Of a stretch of DNA of 40,802 nucleotides, positions 14,457 through 22,988 are shown piece by piece; the first letter of the stretch is position 1, and every line of letters starts with the position of its first letter. Under the pieces are notes generated by a model. The model was not told the origin of the DNA and did not search any database. It worked only from the letters and a program-made list of their open reading frames with translations. Both the position numbers and the translations under genes were made by a program. Source of the DNA: an uncultured Chlorobiaceae bacterium (GTDB taxonomy: Bacteria; Bacteroidota; Chlorobiia; Chlorobiales; Chlorobiaceae); NCBI GenBank assembly GCA_903920215.1, contig CAIXLG010000029.1:1-40802 (forward strand), written 5' to 3'.

Positions 14457-16565
14457 ATGCTTCAGTTTAAAAGAACTCTGGTCACAACGGCGCTTCCATA
14501 CGCTAATGGCCCGGTTCATCTCGGCCACCTGGCAGGTGTTTATCTTCCTGCAGATATTTATGTTCGTTACAAAAGACTCAAGGGTGAGGATGTCATTCAT
14601 ATCGGCGGTTCTGATGAACACGGTGTCCCGATTACCATTACGGCTGAGAAAGAGGGTATTTCACCAAAGGATGTCGTTGACCGCTACCATGCCATGAACG
14701 TTGATGCGTTCAGGAAGTGTGGTATTTCGTTTGATTATTATGGCAGAACAACTTCTCAGGTTCATCATAAAACGGCACAGGAATTTTTTCTTGAGATTGA
14801 GAAGAAAGGAATTTTTACAAAAAAAACTGAAAAGCTTTTTTTTGATCGTAAAGCTGATCGCTTTCTTTCGGATCGCTATGTTACCGGTACCTGCCCGATA
14901 TGCAATAACGCAGAGGCTAACGGTGATCAGTGTGAACAGTGCGGCACCCATTTAAGCCCACTGGAACTTATCAATCCGAAAAGCAAGCTTTCTGATGCGA
15001 CACCGGAGCTGCGCGACACCATGCACTGGTATTTTCCCCTGGGGCGCTTCCAGAAACAGCTGGAGGAGTATATAAACAGCCATGAGGATGACTGGCGGCA
15101 GAATGTGCTGAATTATAGCCGTACCTGGCTCAAACAGGGGCTGAACGACCGGGCGATAACCCGTGATTTGAGCTGGGGTATAAAAGTGCCTCTTGACACG
15201 GAGGAAGCTCTGGGCAAGGTGCTCTATGTATGGTTCGATGCCGTGCTCGGATATATTTCGTTTACAAAAGAGTGGGCAGAAAAACGTGGCGAGAGTGATC
15301 GCTGGAAAGAGTACTGGCAGGATCCCGAGAGCCGTCTCATTCACTTTATCGGCAAGGATAATGTTGTGTTTCATACGCTGATGTTTCCTGCGATTCTGAT
15401 GGCATGGAACGAAGGGCTAGAGAGCGAGTGCTATAATCTTGCTGATAATGTGCCCGCATCGGAGTTCATGAATTTTGAAGGAAGAAAGTTTTCAAAGTCA
15501 AGGAACTATGCGGTTTATCTTGGTGAGTTCCTTGAAAAGTTTCCAGCCGATACCCTGCGTTACAGTATTGCAATGAATTATCCTGAAAACAAGGATAGTG
15601 ATTTCAGCTGGCAGGATTATCAGAACAGGACGAATGGCGAGCTGGCAGATACGCTTGGGAATTTTATCAAACGGTCGGTTGATTTTACCAATGCCCGTTT
15701 TGAGGGAGTTGTGCCCTATGAGTCTACTCTGGAAGATTGGGACTCTCTTGGTATTAACTGGCAGGAGACCCTTCGGCAGCTTGATGTGGCGTTTGAGCAG
15801 TTTCACTTCAGGGAAGCGGCCTCTCTTGGTATGGAGATAGCCAGAGCAGCCAACCGGTTTCTCACAGAGTCGGAGCCATGGAAAGTTATCAAGGTTGACC
15901 GCGATGCAGCTGCAAAAGCAATGGCTCTTTCACTGAACCTTTGTCATGCGCTTGCTGTTGCCCTCTATCCAGTCATACCTGAAACCAGCAACCGGATTTA
16001 TGCAATGCTTGGATTTCAGGATAAGATCGAAGATCGTTTTACCAGGGGAAGCTCTCTCGCGCAATCTCTGCTCGGCCCTGCTCTCTCTAAAGGGCATAAG
16101 CTCAGGGCTGCATCGGAAATACTGTTTATAAAAATCGAGGATGCCGATATCGCTCCGGAACTGAAGAAAATTGAGGCATTGCTCGCTGAAGCCGAGAAAC
16201 GGGAGGCGGGAGCTGAACAGGATCGTATGGAGTTCAAGCCTGTGATCAGCTTTGATGATTTTTTAAAGGTTGACTTGAGGGTCGCTAAAGTTATAGCTGC
16301 TGAAACAGTTAAAAAAGCAGGAAAACTGCTCAAACTGCAGCTCCAGGTAGGTTCTGTAACAAAACAGGTTCTTGCCGGGATAGCACGCTATTACACGCCG
16401 GAAGAGATGATTGGCAAACATGTGGTGCTGGTTGCCAATCTTGCCCAGCGCACCATTCGTGACGAAGTATCAGAGGGGATGATTCTGGCCGTTGAAGGGG
16501 CTGACGGGAAACTTTTTGTCATTGAACCTGATGGAAAAGATATAAATGGTAAACAAATACAATAA
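14457..16565 (+). CDS. metG: Methionyl-tRNA synthetase
   Basis: Charges elongator and initiator tRNA-Met with methionine. The class I signatures are HLGH at 21-24 and KFSKS at 344-348. A zinc knuckle is present (C146, C149, C159, C162; CPIC and CEQC). The anticodon-binding helical domain follows (around 400-550), and the C-terminal ~105 residues form an EMAPII/Arc1p-like tRNA-binding domain (FDDFLKVDLRVAKVIAAE) that also dimerises the enzyme. At 702 residues it is full length. It is followed 46 bp later by the initiator tRNA gene, so enzyme and substrate are neighbours. Confidence 0.98.
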   Translation: MLQFKRTLVTTALPYANGPVHLGHLAGVYLPADIYVRYKRLKGEDVIHIGGSDEHGVPITITAEKEGISPKDVVDRYHAMNVDAFRKCGISFDYYGRTTSQVHHKTAQEFFLEIEKKGIFTKKTEKLFFDRKADRFLSDRYVTGTCPICNNAEANGDQCEQCGTHLSPLELINPKSKLSDATPELRDTMHWYFPLGRFQKQLEEYINSHEDDWRQNVLNYSRTWLKQGLNDRAITRDLSWGIKVPLDTEEALGKVLYVWFDAVLGYISFTKEWAEKRGESDRWKEYWQDPESRLIHFIGKDNVVFHTLMFPAILMAWNEGLESECYNLADNVPASEFMNFEGRKFSKSRNYAVYLGEFLEKFPADTLRYSIAMNYPENKDSDFSWQDYQNRTNGELADTLGNFIKRSVDFTNARFEGVVPYESTLEDWDSLGINWQETLRQLDVAFEQFHFREAASLGMEIARAANRFLTESEPWKVIKVDRDAAAKAMALSLNLCHALAVALYPVIPETSNRIYAMLGFQDKIEDRFTRGSSLAQSLLGPALSKGHKLRAASEILFIKIEDADIAPELKKIEALLAEAEKREAGAEQDRMEFKPVISFDDFLKVDLRVAKVIAAETVKKAGKLLKLQLQVGSVTKQVLAGIARYYTPEEMIGKHVVLVANLAQRTIRDEVSEGMILAVEGADGKLFVIEPDGKDINGKQIQ

Positions 16566-16611
16566 AATGCTTGCATAAGTGATTTTATTCCGTACATTAT
16601 AGCACAAACAT

Positions 16612-16684
<73 letters not shown>

Positions 16685-16693
16685 CAAGTAAAG

Positions 16694-16722
16694 AGCCGCC
16701 CATCAACAGGCGGCTTTTTTTT
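16694..16722 (+). terminator. Rho-independent terminator after tRNA-fMet
   Basis: A 7-bp stem (AGCCGCC 16694-16700 with GGCGGCT 16709-16715), an 8-nt loop and a run of eight T to 16722. It ends the long plus-strand housekeeping run just after the tRNA. Confidence 0.93.
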
Positions 16723-16846
16723 GTCCAATTCGTTTTTTGTCTCCCTGACTGTGTATTTTAGCCCTGTTATCGACGCTTGTTCTTAAGTCGTGCGGATGGG
16801 GGCGTCTTTCAGGCTTGACAATGTTCGGTTAGAGGTACTGTCACAC

Positions 16847-18109
16847 ATGGATATTGAGAGCTGTTATTTTTCTTCACTTTTTCATGGAGGCGCAAAGCGC
16901 TGTTCTGTTCTTTCTCTGCTTTTTTTTCTCTTCTCTCTTTTTTCTGCATCGCGTGTTTTAGCTGAACCATTACTCTGTGGGATTGACCGCCTTGAAGCGA
17001 CAGGATTCAGTGAGCTATCTGGCTTGAAAGTTGGGCTCATTACCAATGTTGCCGGCGTGAGCCGAAAGGCGGAACCGGATTATGCCGTCATGCTTCGAAG
17101 TGGAGTGAGGCTGAAGTTTATTATGGCACCTGAGCATGGATTTTTAGCTGATATTGAAGCTGGCATAGGAGTCGGTGGTTCAGTTGTTCATGATACCCTT
17201 CCTGTCTTTTCGCTCTATGGGACTTCAAAAAAACCGGATATCCGGCAGCTGAAAAGTATTGACATGCTGCTTTTTGACCTTCAGGACATTGGTGCACGCT
17301 GTTATACCTATATCTCGACCATGAACAGTGCCATGCAGGCTTGTGAGGCGGCAGGTATACCCTTTATGGTTCTTGATCGCCCCAATCCGGTTATTCCACT
17401 TTCTCCCTCAGGGTTTGTGCTGGCGCCGGGATATGAGTCGTTTGTAGGGGCTGTCGATATTCCCTTTATTCATTCCATGACAGTCGGTGAAATTGCCACC
17501 ATGCTGAAAGAACGCAAGTATAAACGACTTGATCTGAGAGTGGTATCGATGTCGGGGTACAATCGGAAGCGGTTTGCCGATGAGTATCCGGGCTTCAGGT
17601 TTATCTCTCCTTCACCGAATATCAGAAGTGTTGAGACGGCAATAGTCTATCCTGCGACAGTATTTCTTGAAGCGACAACCGTAAGCGAAGGGCGTGGGAC
17701 AGATGCTCCCTTCGAGCAGCTTGGTGCTCCGTTTATCAATGGGCGTGAACTTGCGGCTCTTCTCAGTCAGTATAAACTACCCGGAGTTTTGTTTAATGCT
17801 GTTGTGTTTCAGCCAGCGTCGAGCAAGTTCAAGGGTGAACGCTGCGAGGGAGTGAAGCTTTCAATTACAGACAGAAAAAAATTCATCCCTTTCAAAACCG
17901 GCGCAGCGATTCTTCTTGCACTGCAGCATCTCTATCCAGAGAAAACAGCTCTTCAGAAAGAAAATGTTTTTTTCGACAGGCTTGCAGGTACTCCATTGTT
18001 CCGGGAGATGATCTGCAAACAAGTGCCGCTTGACGAAATTATGGAGGAAAGCCGGAGGCAGATAGAGCAGTTCAGCCGGACTGCTCCTGTAAAGCTGCTC
18101 TATCAGTGA
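16847..18109 (+). CDS. Exported DUF1343/NamZ-type exo-beta-N-acetylmuramidase
   Basis: Member of the DUF1343 family, which includes NamZ, an exo-acting glycosidase that removes N-acetylmuramic acid from peptidoglycan fragments. The frame opens at GTG 16790, but ATG 16847 is preceded by AGAGGT and gives a better signal peptide: a basic AKRC followed by SVLSLLFFLFSLFSASRVLA. Family blocks are LKVGLITNVAGVSR, FIMAPEHGFLADIEAG, MLLFDLQDIGARCYTYISTM, PFMVLDRPNP, FISPSPNIRSVETA and EGRGTDAPFEQLGAPF. The protein is full length. It probably works in the periplasm in cell-wall recycling. It converges with the STAS gene, one base apart. Confidence 0.88.
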   Translation: MDIESCYFSSLFHGGAKRCSVLSLLFFLFSLFSASRVLAEPLLCGIDRLEATGFSELSGLKVGLITNVAGVSRKAEPDYAVMLRSGVRLKFIMAPEHGFLADIEAGIGVGGSVVHDTLPVFSLYGTSKKPDIRQLKSIDMLLFDLQDIGARCYTYISTMNSAMQACEAAGIPFMVLDRPNPVIPLSPSGFVLAPGYESFVGAVDIPFIHSMTVGEIATMLKERKYKRLDLRVVSMSGYNRKRFADEYPGFRFISPSPNIRSVETAIVYPATVFLEATTVSEGRGTDAPFEQLGAPFINGRELAALLSQYKLPGVLFNAVVFQPASSKFKGERCEGVKLSITDRKKFIPFKTGAAILLALQHLYPEKTALQKENVFFDRLAGTPLFREMICKQVPLDEIMEESRRQIEQFSRTAPVKLLYQ

Positions 18110-18110
18110 G

Positions 18111-18725
18111 CTAAAGGTCAGCTTTTTTCGGGCGCCCTCTTTTTTTTGATCCAGGCTCTTTCGCTGCAGGTGGTTCGGAGAGTTCCGGTTGTTCGGTTAT
18201 GTCATCAGCTTCAAGCATGTGTTCGTCAAGATGTTCCTCAAGATGTTCCTCAAGATGAGCATCAAGATGGGCTTCATTGAGTTCCGGTATGGCAATAAGA
18301 TCAAGGTCATCGCTCAGTTCATCAATAGCTTCATCGCCGGGTGCCTGAGATTTTCCTTTTGAACCCCGCTTGTTTTTCATTGCCGGTTCAATGAGTGTTA
18401 TTACTTCATTGATAGATGAAAAAATGTAGAGCTGTTTGTCCAGATTCGTCAATTTCAGCAGATCCTTGATTTGTTTGCCAAGAGAGACAAAAATCGCCAG
18501 CCCGCCTGATTGATTTGATAGCTGATGAGCGAGCAGCATTGAACTGATGCCGCACGAATCAATGGCTTTTACCTGGGAAAAATCTATGATGAGGTTTTTG
18601 CTTTGGTCCCTATTGACTATTTCATCAATAGCCACCCTGAACGAGTCGCCATGACGAAAATCAAGCACCTGTTCCTCGATTTTCATGATGGTTAACTCTT
18701 TGCGGCTCGATACGGAGTAATTCAT
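18111..18725 (-). CDS. STAS-domain (anti-sigma antagonist type) protein with His-striped and AT-hook-like tail
   Basis: The N-terminal ~110 residues form a STAS domain as in anti-sigma factor antagonists; the loop AIDSCGISSM holds the Ser (S57) that is normally phosphorylated. The rest is unusual. An acidic linker (DELSDDLDLIAIPELNE) leads to a helix with His at 153, 157, 161, 165 and 169, exactly every fourth residue (HLDAHLEEHLEEHLDEH), encoded by imperfect 12-bp DNA repeats. A Pro/Glu stretch then ends in KKRGRPKK, an AT-hook-like motif. A second possible start is ATG 18686 (MKIEEQ), which removes 13 residues. No kinase or sigma-factor partner is nearby. DNA or metal binding is inferred only. 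Confidence 0.85.
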   Translation of the reverse strand: MNYSVSSRKELTIMKIEEQVLDFRHGDSFRVAIDEIVNRDQSKNLIIDFSQVKAIDSCGISSMLLAHQLSNQSGGLAIFVSLGKQIKDLLKLTNLDKQLYIFSSINEVITLIEPAMKNKRGSKGKSQAPGDEAIDELSDDLDLIAIPELNEAHLDAHLEEHLEEHLDEHMLEADDITEQPELSEPPAAKEPGSKKRGRPKKADL

Positions 18726-18824
18726 AAACCTATACTTAATAACTGTAAAAAATTGCTATACAAGTATTTAACGGCATTTCTTGTTGGCAGGGGAGAGGAT
18801 GATCAACAAGACATTTTATCTTAT

Positions 18825-19098
18825 GCTGAAGCCTTTACTCCATAAGGTAAAAAAAAAGCCCACAGTTAATATTTATTTTCGGCAGTAAATATTTTGTTCT
18901 CGCCCTCCCGAAAAAAAACTAACCATCATCCCTGATAGCCTCAAATATTCAAAACTCTGATATCTGATCATAATTACGTATATTTCACAGTTCCGCATAG
19001 TAACAACCTGTTCTTTGGGTCTGATAGCTTTAAATGCTCTTGCTACTGAATGTGAGTGAAAAAAAGAGGAAAGCGGTTGGGTATAAAAAAGAAATGCT
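18825..19098 (+). repeat. 274-bp direct repeat, copy A
   Basis: Matches 21080-21353 over its whole length, with frequent substitutions but equal total length (roughly three quarters identical by eye). It starts at GCTGAAGCC and ends at the GTATAAAAAAGAAATGCT segment. A conserved palindrome, AATATTTA (18868-18875) with TAAATATT (18886-18893), occurs in both copies. The 40 bp before it weakly resemble the 3' end of the structured RNA described at 20975. It ends about 105 bp before the nucleotidyltransferase-like gene. I see no gene in 18726-19194. Confidence 0.85.
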
Positions 19099-19203
19099 AA
19101 TGGATTTGCTGCTCTTTACGGTAATAATACGCTTTGCGGGTACAAATGTAACGAATTATTTTCGTATTATAAGAAGTTTCAGCAACCAAACTGGGTGGCA
19201 GTT

Positions 19204-19791
19204 ATGACGATAGCTGAGGGAACTATCCCGACGTGGAACTCCATCGGAGTGCTGCCTCCCATACGCCCACTACAAAAGGGCCATTCGCCTGATCGTTCTC
19301 CATATATCGCTAATCTGTTGTCAGTTTTTGACCGTTTTGCTATTTCTGAGGAACGCATAACGATACTTCGCGGGTTACTTCAGTTTCGGAGTGAGATGCA
19401 TCAGGCAGGAATAACTTCAGGTTTTCAATGGATAGATGGAAGTTTTTTGGAAAATGTCGAACTTACGGAAGGTCGTCCTCCTCGCGATGTGGATGTCGTA
19501 ACTTTTTTTCACCTTCCAGAAGGAGAATCACAAGCCAGTTTCGCTGGCAGATTTGGGGCATTATTCGAACAAGAGGTTCTTAAGGACAAGTATTTTGTAG
19601 ACTCCTATAACGTTGTACTTGGGGATCCAATGGATTCTTTAAAGGTTAAAATTATTTCATATTGGTACAGCATGTGGTCTCATCGCCGAGACGGTTTGTG
19701 GAAAGGATTTGTTCAAGTTGATCTTGATCCTTCGCAGGATATTGATGCGAGCGCAATTCTGGATAGTGACGGAGGACTGACTTATGAATAA
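19204..19791 (+). CDS. Nucleotidyltransferase-like protein (DUF6932-like), first gene of a two-gene module
   Basis: A 195-residue protein with a polymerase-beta-type nucleotidyltransferase signature: G79-S80-F81 in WIDGSFLEN, then D95 and D97 in RPPRDVDVVTFF. The spacing fits the hG[GS]x9-13DhD pattern. It resembles the uncharacterised DUF6932 group, assigned here from memory of the GSF...DxD layout. GTG 19195 is in frame, but ATG 19204 has GGGTGG 6 nt upstream and is preferred. The stop overlaps the next start by 8 bp, so the two proteins are probably made together. Such enzymes in TA or defence loci may modify RNA or proteins with nucleotides; the target here is unknown. It lies between two 274-bp repeats. 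Confidence 0.7.
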   Translation: MTIAEGTIPTWNSIGVLPPIRPLQKGHSPDRSPYIANLLSVFDRFAISEERITILRGLLQFRSEMHQAGITSGFQWIDGSFLENVELTEGRPPRDVDVVTFFHLPEGESQASFAGRFGALFEQEVLKDKYFVDSYNVVLGDPMDSLKVKIISYWYSMWSHRRDGLWKGFVQVDLDPSQDIDASAILDSDGGLTYE

Positions 19792-20695
19792 TGAATACGA
19801 AACGATATCCTCTGAGATTAAGGATTTGGAAGCGCTTATTTCTTCCGTTCCCCAGGGGAATGTTATTGATAAGATGAGTCTTGAGTCTCGGCTTCGGAGG
19901 GCGAATAATATTTTATCTCATTTGCCGCCACAGTACACTGCACCACGAGCGCAATTGATTTTTCGGGGAAGACCTGTGTCTGGTATACATGGTATTTCCG
20001 CTGATTTTGCTTCCAGAGCGGCATGCGCGTTTTCGGATGCCTTTAGCGCTGTTGCTGCGGGGTTGAGCGACAGGTTAAGGCCTAGTGGCCCAATTCCTGA
20101 TAAAGACAAGAATCAGTTGCTGATTACCGGAATTGCTATAGGTTCTTTTGGTTTTGACTTCGAGCTTCCTGACAAGGGGCAGAATAAGTTTTCGGAATCT
20201 GAAGAAACAAGGGCAGCGATAAATAAGATTAGCGCTTTGTTTCGGTTGGCGGCTGAAGGGAGTGATGACGATCTCGCAGAGCTTGTCGAAGAAGTTCAGC
20301 CCAGAGCTGTAAAGAAAATTCATGAGTTTCTGGATGTTCTCGTCAGGTATCACGCATGGTGTGGGTTGTCGTATGAAAAGACTTCCTTTTGTTATACGGA
20401 TTATGAACAACTCCAGTTTTCCGCTGCTCGCTTGAAAGATGAAAATATTCGGGAGACGCAAGGTACTTATCGTGGAGAATTTCAAGGAGTTCTCCCGACA
20501 GGACGGACGTTTGAATTCAAGCTGCTTGATCAAGATAGTTTGATTAGTGGTAAGGTGGATTCTTCAATTGAAGACCCAGACGTTTTAAACCGGGATTGGT
20601 TGCATCACCCTGTGACAGTAACACTAAACATAATGCAGATCGGGGAGGGGCGCCCGAGATATACGTTGATGTCAATGACCGATTTGATCCGGTAG
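19784..20695 (+). CDS. Partner protein of the nucleotidyltransferase-like module, unknown function
   Basis: A 303-residue protein I do not recognise. The N-terminal ~50 residues look like a helical pair (ISSEIKDLEALISSVPQGNV, then a basic MSLESRLRRANNILSHLP). An FRGRPVSGIHGISADFASRA segment follows, then a mixed region with LLITGIAIGSFGFDFELPD and an acidic helix (GSDDDLAELVEEVQPRAVKK). The C-terminal third (RGEFQGVLPTGRTFEFKLLD) looks like beta strands. There is no signal peptide or membrane helix. The start ATG overlaps the upstream gene by 8 bp, with GGAGG about 8 nt before it. Tight coupling suggests one complex, perhaps the target-binding or neutralising partner of the nucleotidyltransferase-like protein; this is inference. 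Confidence 0.6.
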   Translation: MNNEYETISSEIKDLEALISSVPQGNVIDKMSLESRLRRANNILSHLPPQYTAPRAQLIFRGRPVSGIHGISADFASRAACAFSDAFSAVAAGLSDRLRPSGPIPDKDKNQLLITGIAIGSFGFDFELPDKGQNKFSESEETRAAINKISALFRLAAEGSDDDLAELVEEVQPRAVKKIHEFLDVLVRYHAWCGLSYEKTSFCYTDYEQLQFSAARLKDENIRETQGTYRGEFQGVLPTGRTFEFKLLDQDSLISGKVDSSIEDPDVLNRDWLHHPVTVTLNIMQIGEGRPRYTLMSMTDLIR

Positions 20696-20974
20696 GGGCT
20701 CCAAAGTGGCGCAAAGAGGATTTTGAGGAAGCTGGTGTATCAGAAAAAAAAGAGAGGCCGCTGATTTGCTACGCTGGTTCAGCAGGCCGAGACCTCGATA
20801 GATTCAAAGCCGATAGGCCATGAATTCACTTACAGTATAAGGGATATATTATCGATGCCAAGGGGAAAAATATTTCTCATTATAGTGGCCCCCGATGATT
20901 AGACAGCAGTTTGAGTTTTAAACTGGCCCAAAAAAGGAGCAGGTAATGACTCATAACCCTTGATAGGAAACGTT
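20696..20974. other. Spacer after the two-gene module
   Basis: No gene is supported here. A 75-codon frame (20596-20823) overlaps the end of the 303-residue protein and continues to a TGA at 20821-20823, but it has no ribosome site or family resemblance. The rest is AT-rich and leads into the first copy of the structured RNA. No clear terminator is visible. Confidence 0.4.
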
Positions 20975-21087
20975 CTATTGCTTACACTATGAGTAATAAT
21001 ACCTGCCATGCTTCCCACTTGAACAGCGCACCCGGGCAGGTTTTCGCTTTTTACAGGGTTTTGTCTTTTAATCTCAGAAGCTGAAGC
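20975..21087 (+). ncRNA. Predicted structured RNA, copy B (orphan)
   Basis: About 113 nt nearly identical to 21545-21657. Two stems can be drawn. P1 pairs ATTGCTT with GAGTAAT (20977-20999). P2 pairs ACCTGCC with GGCAGGT across a loop containing CGCTTCCCACTTGAACAG-like sequence. A U-rich 3' part (TTTTCGCTTTTTACAGGG) follows. Almost all differences from the other copy lie in P1, and they keep it paired. Unlike copy C, this one is not followed by an abiF gene but runs directly into 274-bp repeat copy B. It is read here on the plus strand by analogy with copy C. Confidence 0.6.
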
Positions 21088-21353
21088 CCTTACTTTCAAA
21101 GGTAAAAAAGCCAACAGTTAATATTTATTTTCCGCAGTAAATATTCTGTTTTCGCCCTCCAGAAAAAACCCATCAATCTTACCTGACAGCCGAAAATATC
21201 AAAGCCCCTTTTCCTTATATTTCAATTACGTATATTTCGCTTCGTTATCCTGTAGAGACCTGTCCTGTGGGCGTGATAGCTTCAAATGTTCTTGCTGCCG
21301 AATGTGAGGACAAAGAAAAGAGGGAAGCGGCTGGGTATATAAAAAGAAACGCT
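21080..21353 (+). repeat. 274-bp direct repeat, copy B
   Basis: Counterpart of 18825-19098. The conserved palindrome is AATATTTA 21120-21127 with TAAATATT 21138-21145. Its first bases overlap the end of structured RNA copy B at the GAAGCTGAAGCCC junction. The two copies bracket the nucleotidyltransferase-like gene pair. Between 21354 and 21544 I see only a short frame from ATG 21427 that runs into the next RNA copy, which I do not call. Confidence 0.85.
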
Positions 21354-21544
21354 CCCAACAAGTCGGAAGCGTCAGACCGGAGATACTATCTCTGGTGATG
21401 TTATAGTTCAAATGTAAGCTTTAGAGATGAATAAAACCATGAAAAAGAAAGAGTTCAGGTCTATGTTGATGGATTTAACCTCTACTTTGGTATGCTTGAA
21501 GCAAGGTATTACTTCTTGTAAAAGAAAACTTGACAGCGAACCCG

Positions 21545-21657
21545 CTATTGCTTACATTGTAGGCAATAATACCTGCCACGCTTCCCACTTGAACAGCGCA
21601 CCCGGGCAGGTTTTCGCTTTTTACAGGGTTTTGTCTTTTAATTTCAGAAGCTGAACC
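21545..21657 (+). ncRNA. Predicted structured RNA, copy C (AbiF-associated)
   Basis: Second copy of the 113-nt element, ending 2 bp before the abiF start codon. P1 is ATTGCTTAC-ATT-GTAGGCAAT (21547-21567), longer and better paired than in copy B. P2 (ACCTGCC...GGCAGGT) and its loop are identical to copy B except one base. From established comparative work, genes of the AbiF family commonly have a conserved structured RNA directly upstream (abiF RNA motif), and the position fits. It could be an RNA antitoxin or a leader that controls abiF. I have not checked it against a covariance model. Confidence 0.7.
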
Positions 21658-21659
21658 CC

Positions 21660-22556
21660 ATGTTATACAGTAAACCCGCAGTATCAATCCCTGACCAAAT
21701 CACAAAACTGAAAGCAAGGCATCTTGCCTTTGGTGACGAAGCATTTGCTATACATTGCCTCTCCAATATCAGTTATTACCGGCTTAGAGCTTATACCTAT
21801 CCTTTCCAGGATAACACGCTCCCGGATCATCCGTTCGTTGTTCCAGTCACCTTTGAGCAGATCATAGAGCTCTATGTTTTTGACCGTAAACTGAGGGGCT
21901 TGGTGTTTGATGCAATGGAGAAAATTGAAATTGCCATGCGAACACAAATTATCCACCAATGGGCAATGCCATATGGTAGCCATTGGCAGTTAAACGAGAC
22001 CCTTTTCAGGGATACGAATCGTTTTAACAACCAGATTGTCTCGTTACAAACAGAAATCAGTCGTTCCAACGAAACGTTTATAGAGCATTACAAGAAGACC
22101 TATACCGAACCTGTTGATCCGCCATCATGGATGAGTCTTGAGGTGAGCAGTTTTGGCTTGTTGTCTCAAATGTTCAGGAATCTGAAAAAAAGTCCTGAAA
22201 AAATCGCAGTGGCAAAGCATTTCGGGCTAAACAATATTGACCTGCTCGAAAACTGGATGCTCTGCTTCAGTCATATCCGCAACACTTGTGCGCATCACGG
22301 TCGCTTATGGAACCGTAGGTTGACGGCACATATCACATTGCCAAAAAACCCCTCAAACCCATTTATCCAAAACAGAAAAATTTTACCGTACAAGCCCTAC
22401 GCAGCGTCATGTTGTATGCAATACATTTTGCAAAACATCAGCTCCGATACTTTATTTAAGGACGGTCTGAAAGCGCTTATGAAAACCTGTCCCCTTAAAC
22501 AGGAAAAGGAAATGGGTTTCCCGGAAGATTGGCGATCAGAATCTTTTTGGAAATGA
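21660..22556 (+). CDS. AbiF/AbiD-family HEPN abortive-infection protein (Abi_2)
   Basis: A 298-residue protein of the Abi_2 family, which includes phage abortive-infection proteins AbiD and AbiF. N-terminal features are KPAVSIPDQITKLKARHLAF and LSNISYYRLRAYTYPFQ, both typical. DRKLRGLVFDAMEKIEIAMRT is the central helix. The HEPN ribonuclease motif RX4H is intact as R207-H212 in HIRNTCAHHGRLWNR. HEPN proteins of this kind cut RNA and cause growth arrest on phage infection. AbiF-like proteins have been proposed as relatives of the ancestor of Cas13. Start is ATG 21660, directly after structured RNA copy C. No protein antitoxin is adjacent, which favours RNA control. Confidence 0.88.
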   Translation: MLYSKPAVSIPDQITKLKARHLAFGDEAFAIHCLSNISYYRLRAYTYPFQDNTLPDHPFVVPVTFEQIIELYVFDRKLRGLVFDAMEKIEIAMRTQIIHQWAMPYGSHWQLNETLFRDTNRFNNQIVSLQTEISRSNETFIEHYKKTYTEPVDPPSWMSLEVSSFGLLSQMFRNLKKSPEKIAVAKHFGLNNIDLLENWMLCFSHIRNTCAHHGRLWNRRLTAHITLPKNPSNPFIQNRKILPYKPYAASCCMQYILQNISSDTLFKDGLKALMKTCPLKQEKEMGFPEDWRSESFWK

Positions 22557-22631
22557 TACAGTAGAAGAGAGAGGGACCCCATACCAAATCCCGATCCAGT
22601 TTTGGAAAAACGACTATTAACTATCACTGAA

Positions 22632-22988
22632 ATGAACGAACTGAAAAATATTCATCCGGGCGAGGTTTTGATGGAGGAGTTTTTAATTCCATTAGAAATA
22701 TCGGCTTACAGGCTTTCCAAAGATATCGGGATTCCTCAGACCCGGATATCCGAGATATTGAAAGGGAAGAGACGTATTACGGCAGACACGGCATTGCGTC
22801 TCTCACAATATTTCGGGAATTCCGCAAAGTTCTGGTTAGGTCTGCAGGCTGACTATGATATTGAGGATGGGATGCGGAGCAAGAAAGCTGAAATAAATTC
22901 TATTCTTCACTACGCTATACCACAAGTACCTTGTGTTGTATGTGTCCCTTCTTCAACCCCAGGGAGCGCTGAACCCCAGCTCGGCTGA
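22632..22988 (+). CDS. higA: HigA-family antitoxin (solitary)
   Basis: XRE-type helix-turn-helix antitoxin of the HigA group. The conserved start NIHPGEVLMEEFLIPLEI is followed by the helix-turn-helix (SAYRLSKDIGIPQTRISEIL, then KGKRRITADTALRLSQYF) and the group's NSAKFWLGLQADYDIE block. A TTG at 22602 is in frame, but ATG 22632 (MNELKNIHPGE) fits the family. The last ~25 residues (PQVPCVVCVPSSTPG onward) are not family-like, so the original stop may have been lost. No higB toxin is found upstream, where it usually lies; abiF is the upstream neighbour. A fragment of the same gene recurs at 24334. Confidence 0.85.
   Translation: MNELKNIHPGEVLMEEFLIPLEISAYRLSKDIGIPQTRISEILKGKRRITADTALRLSQYFGNSAKFWLGLQADYDIEDGMRSKKAEINSILHYAIPQVPCVVCVPSSTPGSAEPQLG

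What the first reader, a model, noticed from the sequence alone, without database searches (positions are those of the whole stretch)
20975..22556. AbiF-type HEPN protein with an upstream structured RNA and a second orphan RNA copy
Seen: an intact RX4H HEPN protein (R207/H212) starts 2 bp after a 113-nt element that recurs at 20975-21087. In the two copies P2 and its loop are essentially unchanged, while almost all differences fall in P1 and leave it paired (a G.U in copy B is G-C in copy C). That is what a conserved RNA looks like. Known: AbiF genes are commonly preceded by a structured RNA, and AbiF-like HEPN proteins are discussed as Cas13 relatives. Inference: RNA-controlled toxin/abortive-infection unit, with the orphan copy as an extra antitoxin or decoy.
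Basis: partly seen in the sequence, partly recalled or inferred. Interest (0 to 1): 0.82.

Follow-up and report, generated by a model that had tools for sequence, protein, structure and literature searches.

The report
AbiF toxin, RNA antitoxin, spare RNA
A green-sulfur bacterium carries a known kind of anti-phage poison (AbiF) that is probably held in check by a small RNA, and beside it lies a separate copy of that RNA which two relatives keep at the same spot with no poison gene in sight, hinting that such RNAs can live a life of their own.

Summary
Confirmed: 21660-22556 is an intact AbiF/Abi_2 HEPN protein (Pfam E 1.7e-56; full-length homologue of the solved AbiF 8VZ6, E 9.7e-52) with an abiF-type RNA directly 5', and a near-identical RNA 570 nt upstream. 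The P2 hairpin is a real conserved RNA: 9 of 10 pairs show compensatory changes over 80 sequences. Both miss Rfam's RF03085 gathering score. The unit is a new member of the AbiF-AbiFr (type III-like) toxin-antitoxin kind. New: the orphan copy is a 'solo' abiF RNA resident at this locus. Two relatives keep it there with no abiF seen, while the promoter+RNA+abiF cassette (21514-22572) occurs elsewhere on its own. In the genus, 20 of 54 abiF-RNA hits have no AbiF in the downstream DNA examined; there and in other Bacteroidota some precede type III R-M, ParE, HigB, DarT, HsdR, IetA or AbiLi genes. Whether solo RNAs are trans-antitoxins, leaders of other defence operons, or remnants of lost abiF genes is undecided.

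The parts
   Evidence: distance to the RNA as in many homologues
20995..21052 (+). solo abiF-type RNA (copy A): outer stem 21001-21007/21035-21041, inner stem 21009-21011/21026-21028 (one pair U.G), U-rich tail
   Evidence: R1 77.3 bits E 7.8e-18 (the sequence is in R1's training set); Rfam RF03085 18.2 bits, below gathering; syntenic in G033 and G016 with no abiF seen
21080..21353 (+). genus repeat between the two RNAs; also at window 18825-19098 (77%) and in other genomes
21437..21513 (+). 5' fragment of an NYN-domain gene, frameshifted here relative to L011, ending where the abiF cassette begins
   Evidence: full-length relatives L036 and L040 match PF01936
21514..22572 (+). cassette (promoter, RNA, abiF) shared as a block with genomes that have a single RNA copy (right edge 22556 or 22572 depending on the genome)
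21565..21622 (+). abiF-type RNA (copy B), predicted start about 21565; stems 21571-21577/21605-21611 and 21579-21581/21596-21598, then U-rich TTTTCGCTTTTT
   Evidence: Rfam RF03085 25.7 bits E 0.042, below gathering 37; covariation; R1 80.3 bits (training set)
21660..22556 (+). abiF: Abi_2/AbiD/F HEPN RNase, R207-x4-H212
22632..22988 (+). HigA-type antitoxin directly downstream, no HigB seen beside it
   Evidence: TIGR02607 E 6.7e-31

Best explanation
21514-22572 is an AbiF-AbiFr type III-like toxin-antitoxin and abortive-infection cassette. A sigma70 promoter makes a ~58-nt hairpin RNA that (by homology) binds the AbiF HEPN RNase dimer and blocks it; the U-rich tract after the hairpin (inference) ends most transcripts before abiF, so toxin is made only by readthrough. 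The upstream copy (20995-21052) is not part of this cassette: it is a resident solo abiF RNA with its own promoter, which most likely still makes an RNA able to bind AbiF in trans. Shown: genes, promoters by consensus, structure by covariation, synteny. Inferred: transcription, termination, binding, toxicity, and the trans role.
For: Abi_2 and 8VZ6 homology. RNA just 5' of abiF in 77 of the 80 AbiF loci kept from public genomes (best 80 of 561; 76 at E <1e-4, L173 cut off at E 0.35; none in L121, which has no upstream DNA, L176 and L188). 9 of 10 pairs with changes on both sides, 99.5% of cells paired against 89.5% in shuffles (alignment fitted to the model), and 4 of 10 pairs on an independent MAFFT alignment of 10 sequences. 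Best xAxxxT hexamer ends exactly 6 nt before the RNA in 47 of 74. Between the copies 1/58 differences in the RNA against 11/36 upstream, p 8e-5. Copy A is syntenic without abiF in G033 and G016, and with abiF in G005. RCd22 neutralises AbiF in cis and in trans (PMC12373285).
Against: No expression data. Against window copy A, G033 differs by 1/58 in the RNA and 7/160 upstream, so there the RNA is not clearly better kept than its flank. G016's solo copy loses an end pair. G033 is 80% complete and its contig ends 486 nt past the RNA, so an abiF nearby cannot be excluded. Copies A and B share derived bases not in single-copy genomes, so they are closely related and the order of events is open. 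The terminator scan called no terminator on the + strand after either RNA.
Confidence: 0.55

Rival explanations
1. The AbiF-RNA cassette works as above, but copy A is only a remnant of an abiF cassette lost earlier and has no selected role.
For: 16 of 54 genus hits have only a partial AbiF behind them (fragments, frameshifts or contig ends), so decay is common. AbiF is recorded as embedded in R-M operons (PMC3710099 Table 1, passage) and R-M genes follow it in some loci here, so losing abiF would leave an RNA before another defence gene. G016's copy loses an end pair, and copy A's RNA is not clearly better kept than its upstream flank in G033.
Against: Copy A keeps promoter and both stems; 1/58 RNA differences against 11/36 in the promoter region relative to copy B; RNA identical in G005 and G033 although the 60 nt after it differ at 7 sites and DNA further on is largely unrelated.
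Confidence: 0.33
2. Copy A arose by tandem duplication of the abiF RNA in this lineage, as an extra antitoxin gene.
For: A and B share derived bases; tandem copies exist elsewhere: three RNA hits 135 nt apart before abiF in G327:C22 and two motifs in RCd22 (PMC12373285).
Against: The syntenic locus in G016 and G033 has copy A and its flanks but no copy B or abiF seen; the gap holds an unrelated genus repeat and an NYN fragment.
Confidence: 0.1
3. The RNA acts only in cis, as an attenuator of abiF, and does not bind the protein.
For: By eye, a T-rich stretch follows the hairpin in the upstream regions, and the L015/L008 group has a further terminator-like hairpin with a long T-tract before the ATG.
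Against: Conserved loop and bulge bases beyond the stem; homologous systems bind and act in trans (PMC12373285; PMC12737573).
Confidence: 0.06

Closest known systems
AbiF-AbiFr (PbAbiF with its ncRNA, PDB 8VZ6; Zilberzwige-Tal et al., Cell 2025, seen only as cited in PMC12737573 and PMC12373285)
   Same: Full-length homologous HEPN protein with the same active pair; an associated ncRNA
   Different: A solo RNA copy lies upstream here; the letters of PbAbiFr were not seen, so the RNAs were not compared
RCd22-AbiFCd of Clostridioides difficile phi027 (PMC12373285)
   Same: abiF-motif RNA under a sigma-A type promoter, readthrough to abiF, more than one motif
   Different: There both motifs lie in one ~100-130-nt transcript; here two RNAs have separate promoters 570 nt apart
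Rfam RF03085 abiF RNA
   Same: Same consensus layout in the alignment: 6-bp stem, one-base bulge, 3-bp stem, loop, six-base bulge
   Different: Both copies fall below the gathering score (25.7 and 18.2 against 37 bits)
Type III toxin-antitoxin ToxIN (recalled; search listing and abstract starts only)
   Same: RNA antitoxin neutralising an endoribonuclease
   Different: ToxI is a pseudoknot made of repeats; ToxN is not a HEPN protein (the latter recalled)
Cas13/Cas13an (PMC12165695, passages read)
   Same: HEPN domains related to AbiD/F
   Different: No CRISPR array or guide seen here

Membership tests
AbiD/F (Abi_2) proteins | Abi_2 profile above curated cut-off | tested here: met
   191.9 bits against 25.6; PADLOC AbiD E 7.1e-71
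AbiD/F (Abi_2) proteins | HEPN Rx4H active pair | tested here: met
   R207/H212, invariant in the 7 aligned proteins, aligned to 8VZ6
AbiF-AbiFr toxin-antitoxin | abiF-type RNA immediately 5' of the gene, same strand | tested here: met
   RNA ends 37 nt before the ATG
AbiF-AbiFr toxin-antitoxin | RNA structure kept by compensatory change | tested here: met
AbiF-AbiFr toxin-antitoxin | Discrete RNA made from its own promoter | not testable with these tools
   promoter consensus at a recurrent distance only
AbiF-AbiFr toxin-antitoxin | Toxicity, and neutralisation by the RNA in cis or trans | not testable with these tools
   shown for C. difficile AbiF (PMC12373285), not here
Rfam RF03085 | Gathering score 37 bits | tested here: not met
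   25.7 and 18.2 bits. RF03085 finds 0 of 86 family genomes (nothing rang in its controls either, so by itself no proof of absence), while R1 finds the RNA in 32 of 65 genus genomes
CRISPR-Cas13 | CRISPR array or crRNA guide, two HEPN domains | tested here: not met
   one Abi_2 match in the protein; in 20800-22700 only the two-copy 131-nt repeat and one 14-nt pair, no array

The most novel reading that the evidence does not exclude
Solo abiF-type RNAs are a selected class of their own: hairpin units uncoupled from abiF that lead other defence and toxin-antitoxin operons (type III R-M mod, ParDE, HigBA, DarTG, HsdR, IetA, AbiLi) and/or serve as standing antidotes against incoming AbiF. The window's copy A would be one such unit, next to which an RNA-abiF cassette landed. 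This would make the abiF RNA a movable control element shared among unrelated defence systems.
Probability: 0.27. Interest if true: 0.78.

Novelty: new variant of a known kind. Interest (0 to 1): 0.52.

Why it matters
AbiF and its RNA are held to be the stock from which Cas13 arose (PMC12737573, PMC12165695). A class of abiF RNAs that persist without AbiF would show that the RNA half of that pair can be selected on its own, as antidote or as leader of other defence operons, which is the kind of step needed to turn an antitoxin into a guide (inference). The syntenic series here (solo RNA in G016/G033, RNA plus cassette in G000/G005) gives a direct place to test it. Practically, RF03085 at its gathering score misses both RNAs of the window, so present annotation may undercount such RNAs.

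Tried and rejected
Rejected: P1 as an RNA helix. Rejected: copy A as a plain tandem duplicate, kept as a minor rival. Rejected: a peptide reading of the spacer (21189-21395) as a gene; it lies in a drifting genus repeat. Judged false: several weak R2 hits (G566, G422, G552, G299:C1) that lack the conserved core and look like ordinary terminators; they are still counted among the 15 'no AbiF' rows outside the genus. Dropped before the count: 19 of the 35 outside-genus rows (E 7.0e-6 and weaker) and one in-genus row (G001), which I looked at and took for a terminator. Led nowhere: AbiF in viral contigs, 0 relatives; RF03085 over 86 family genomes, 0; Pfam for a 634-aa protein of a type III R-M operon, for the piece beside G050, the small protein beside G052 and the 34-aa NYN fragment, no hit. 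No structure prediction was run, since a full-length solved homologue exists.

Full report
Observation. The protein at 21660-22556 is an intact Abi_2/AbiD/F protein. Its only PDB match at E up to 0.1 is 8VZ6, an Abi family protein aligned over nearly its whole length at E 9.7e-52, with R207/H212 on R210/H215 (the meaning of those residues from PMC12373285, section 13, part 1 of 2 read). The 131-nt repeat is real, 89% identical, at 20959-21089 and 21529-21659, the second ending at the ATG.

The RNA. Rfam at its gathering score finds only a tRNA in the window. With the limit relaxed, RF03085 abiF hits 21572-21611 (25.7 bits, E 0.042, the best hit of the stretch) and 21002-21041 (18.2 bits, E 3, by itself no better than chance hits); the gathering score is 37. 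The upstream regions of AbiF genes in the genus share a core and a stem that changes in pairs. On a MAFFT alignment of 10 of them, 99% of cells pair and 4 of 10 pairs have changes on both sides; no slid version exceeds 47%. Three further sequences of another group were left out of that alignment because their bulge is one base longer. A covariance model (R1) then found the RNA in 77 of the 80 AbiF loci kept, from Bacteroidota, Alphaproteobacteria and others, just 5' of the gene. On that alignment, fitted to the model, 9 of 10 pairs have changes on both sides and 99.5% of cells pair, against 89.5% in shuffles. Only one of the 80 loci shows a second hit within the DNA held (L183, E 0.01).

P1 overlaps the promoter. 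So transcription should begin at about 21565 and 20995. The P1 hairpin folds at -6 kcal/mol or better in 10 of 74, nine of them in the window's own clade, and is broken in G019:C26 although that RNA is identical to copy B. Between the two copies the promoter region differs at 11 of 36 sites, the RNA at 1 of 58, the tail at 2 of 37.

Relatives at the same place. G005 holds the same arrangement with an identical AbiF. G033 is colinear with window 16000-21237 at 89.8%, copy A included, and then has a HigB toxin gene (PF05015 E 2.9e-13) 270 nt after the RNA. G016 has the left neighbour gene, one RNA of type A, then HigA and the DNA that in the window holds a miaA-type gene (name recalled), with no copy B or abiF. 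Neither genome has an Abi_2 match (G033 is 80% complete, G016 98%). The part shared with single-copy genomes in other surroundings is 21514-22572, the promoter, RNA and abiF. Between the RNAs lie a genus repeat, also at 18825-19098, and the 5' end of an NYN-domain gene that stops at the cassette's left edge. Copy A is therefore a resident solo RNA; whether it came first, or is left from an earlier abiF, is open. A and B share derived bases against the single-copy genomes.

Solo RNAs at large. R1 gives 54 hits in 32 of 65 genomes of the genus at E up to 0.01. Of these 54, 15 have intact AbiF within 120 nt, 2 are the extra copies in G000 and G005, 16 have partial AbiF (fragments, frameshifts or contig ends), 20 have none in at least 400 nt of downstream DNA, and 1 has none but too little DNA (for genus rows only 400 nt upstream were looked at). 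Outside the genus I searched with R2 in 296 phylum genomes (which include genus members) and 379 class genomes (the sets overlap). I took the 16 best of 35 outside-genus rows and all 34 rows, 2 of them repeats, in all 48. Of these 48, 19 have intact AbiF, 2 are extra copies, 7 partial, 4 with AbiF divergent, 15 none and 1 too short; at least four of the 15 lack the core and look false. Five rows in the 'partial' classes were put there by tblastn or by my reading of an AbiF N-terminus, not by the HMM.

Genes after solo RNAs, same strand, 40 to about 330 nt on: a type III R-M methyltransferase in five loci (family tested on G055 only; two copies are truncated and one has a stop); an Unstab_antitox/ParE pair (tested on one sequence, seen in 4 of 5 loci of that group); HigB (G033); HigA-like HTH (G016); PIN_3 (G024:C48, a weaker RNA hit); HTH (G022; G025 alike by sequence); DarT with a macro-domain partner (G307) and DarT (G469:C148); HsdR (G127); DUF4062/PDC-S60 (G077); IetA (G220); AbiLi (G181). 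G050 and G052 gave no family. G059:C130, G173, G105/G479, G469:C292, G014:C3 and G462:C66 have no such gene on the same strand, and G037:C14 keeps only the first codons of mod.

How to read that. For a kept role: in the type III R-M group, the RNA and the 60 nt after it (45-nt leader and first codons) differ at only 3/58 and 2/60 between G055 and G014:C8 while the upstream flank is unrelated and the next 240 nt differ at 52 of 181 aligned sites (Fisher 1e-4); I picked that pair for its contrast. Many solo RNAs outside that group keep a -10 at the usual distance. Against: between G055 and G038 the RNA differs at 3/58 but the upstream flank at only 1/159; in the ParE group RNA and flank differ at 2/58 and 15/159, or 5/58 and 30/159, a mild excess; winA and G033 differ at 1/58 and 7/160. 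The R-M group lacks the -10 at the usual distance (best hexamers 2 to 8 nt away, or none). Only 5 of 14 close mod orthologues have the RNA. The gene after abiF is itself R-M in some loci: of 80 AbiF loci 49 have a same-strand ORF within 320 nt; of 25 of these that I picked, not a fair sample, 7 match type I specificity subunits, and the first (L112) a type III restriction enzyme (which shows 25 of 152 families). PMC3710099 Table 1 (passage) already records Abi2/AbiF/AbiD as embedded in R-M operons. Loss of abiF from such operons would leave exactly these solo RNAs. No matched random control was run.

In print. A full-text search for RF03085, abiF RNA, abiF motif or AbiFr gave 7 papers, three of them unrelated by title. 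One reports an abiF sRNA in cyanophage S-CREM1 (PMC9964418, passages read). In what I read (abstract and sections of PMC12373285; passages) I saw no description of solo abiF RNAs before other defence genes. I did not read the Cell 2025 paper or the original description of the RNA motif, so this is no proof that it is undescribed.

Verdict. The P1 part is wrong. The orphan copy turns out to be the more interesting half.

Noticed in passing
G055:C7 (L103), G051:C8 (L104), G014:C8 (L105), G023:C8 (L106), G038:C6 (L107): abiF-type RNA plus a leader of about 45-53 nt directly before a type III R-M methyltransferase gene (two truncated, one with a stop); by eye, a GGGGGTAGGG after the hairpin could pair with its CCCCCC arm.
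   Followed up: partly
G307:C53 (L228), G469:C148 (L280): abiF-type RNA with promoter-like sequence about 40 nt before darT, in two genomes of one family.
   Followed up: partly
G327:C22:23411-23734 (L277): Three abiF-type RNA hits 135 nt apart in tandem before one abiF gene.
   Followed up: partly
G450:C95, G462:C8, G463:C2, G436:C32 (L253, L254, L255, L261): abiF-type RNA divergent from abiF, about 55 nt apart, instead of in front of it.
   Followed up: no
window 18825-19098 and 21080-21353: A ~270-nt repeat of the genus, 77% identical, before a DUF6932 gene and between the two RNAs; nature unknown.
   Followed up: partly
window 19195-19791: DUF6932 gene matching PADLOC candidate PDC-M63A (E 6.2e-11), upstream of a 303-aa gene with no match above a curated cut-off.
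   Followed up: no
window 22632-22988: HigA-type antitoxin without HigB; G033 has HigB after the solo RNA, where the window has the spacer and abiF cassette.
   Followed up: partly
G000:C96:4763-5177 (L242): The same genome holds a second abiF with its own RNA subtype, cut off by the contig end.
   Followed up: no
L015, L008, L016 upstream regions: By eye, another clade of abiF has a terminator-like hairpin with a long T-tract between the RNA and the abiF start codon.
   Followed up: no
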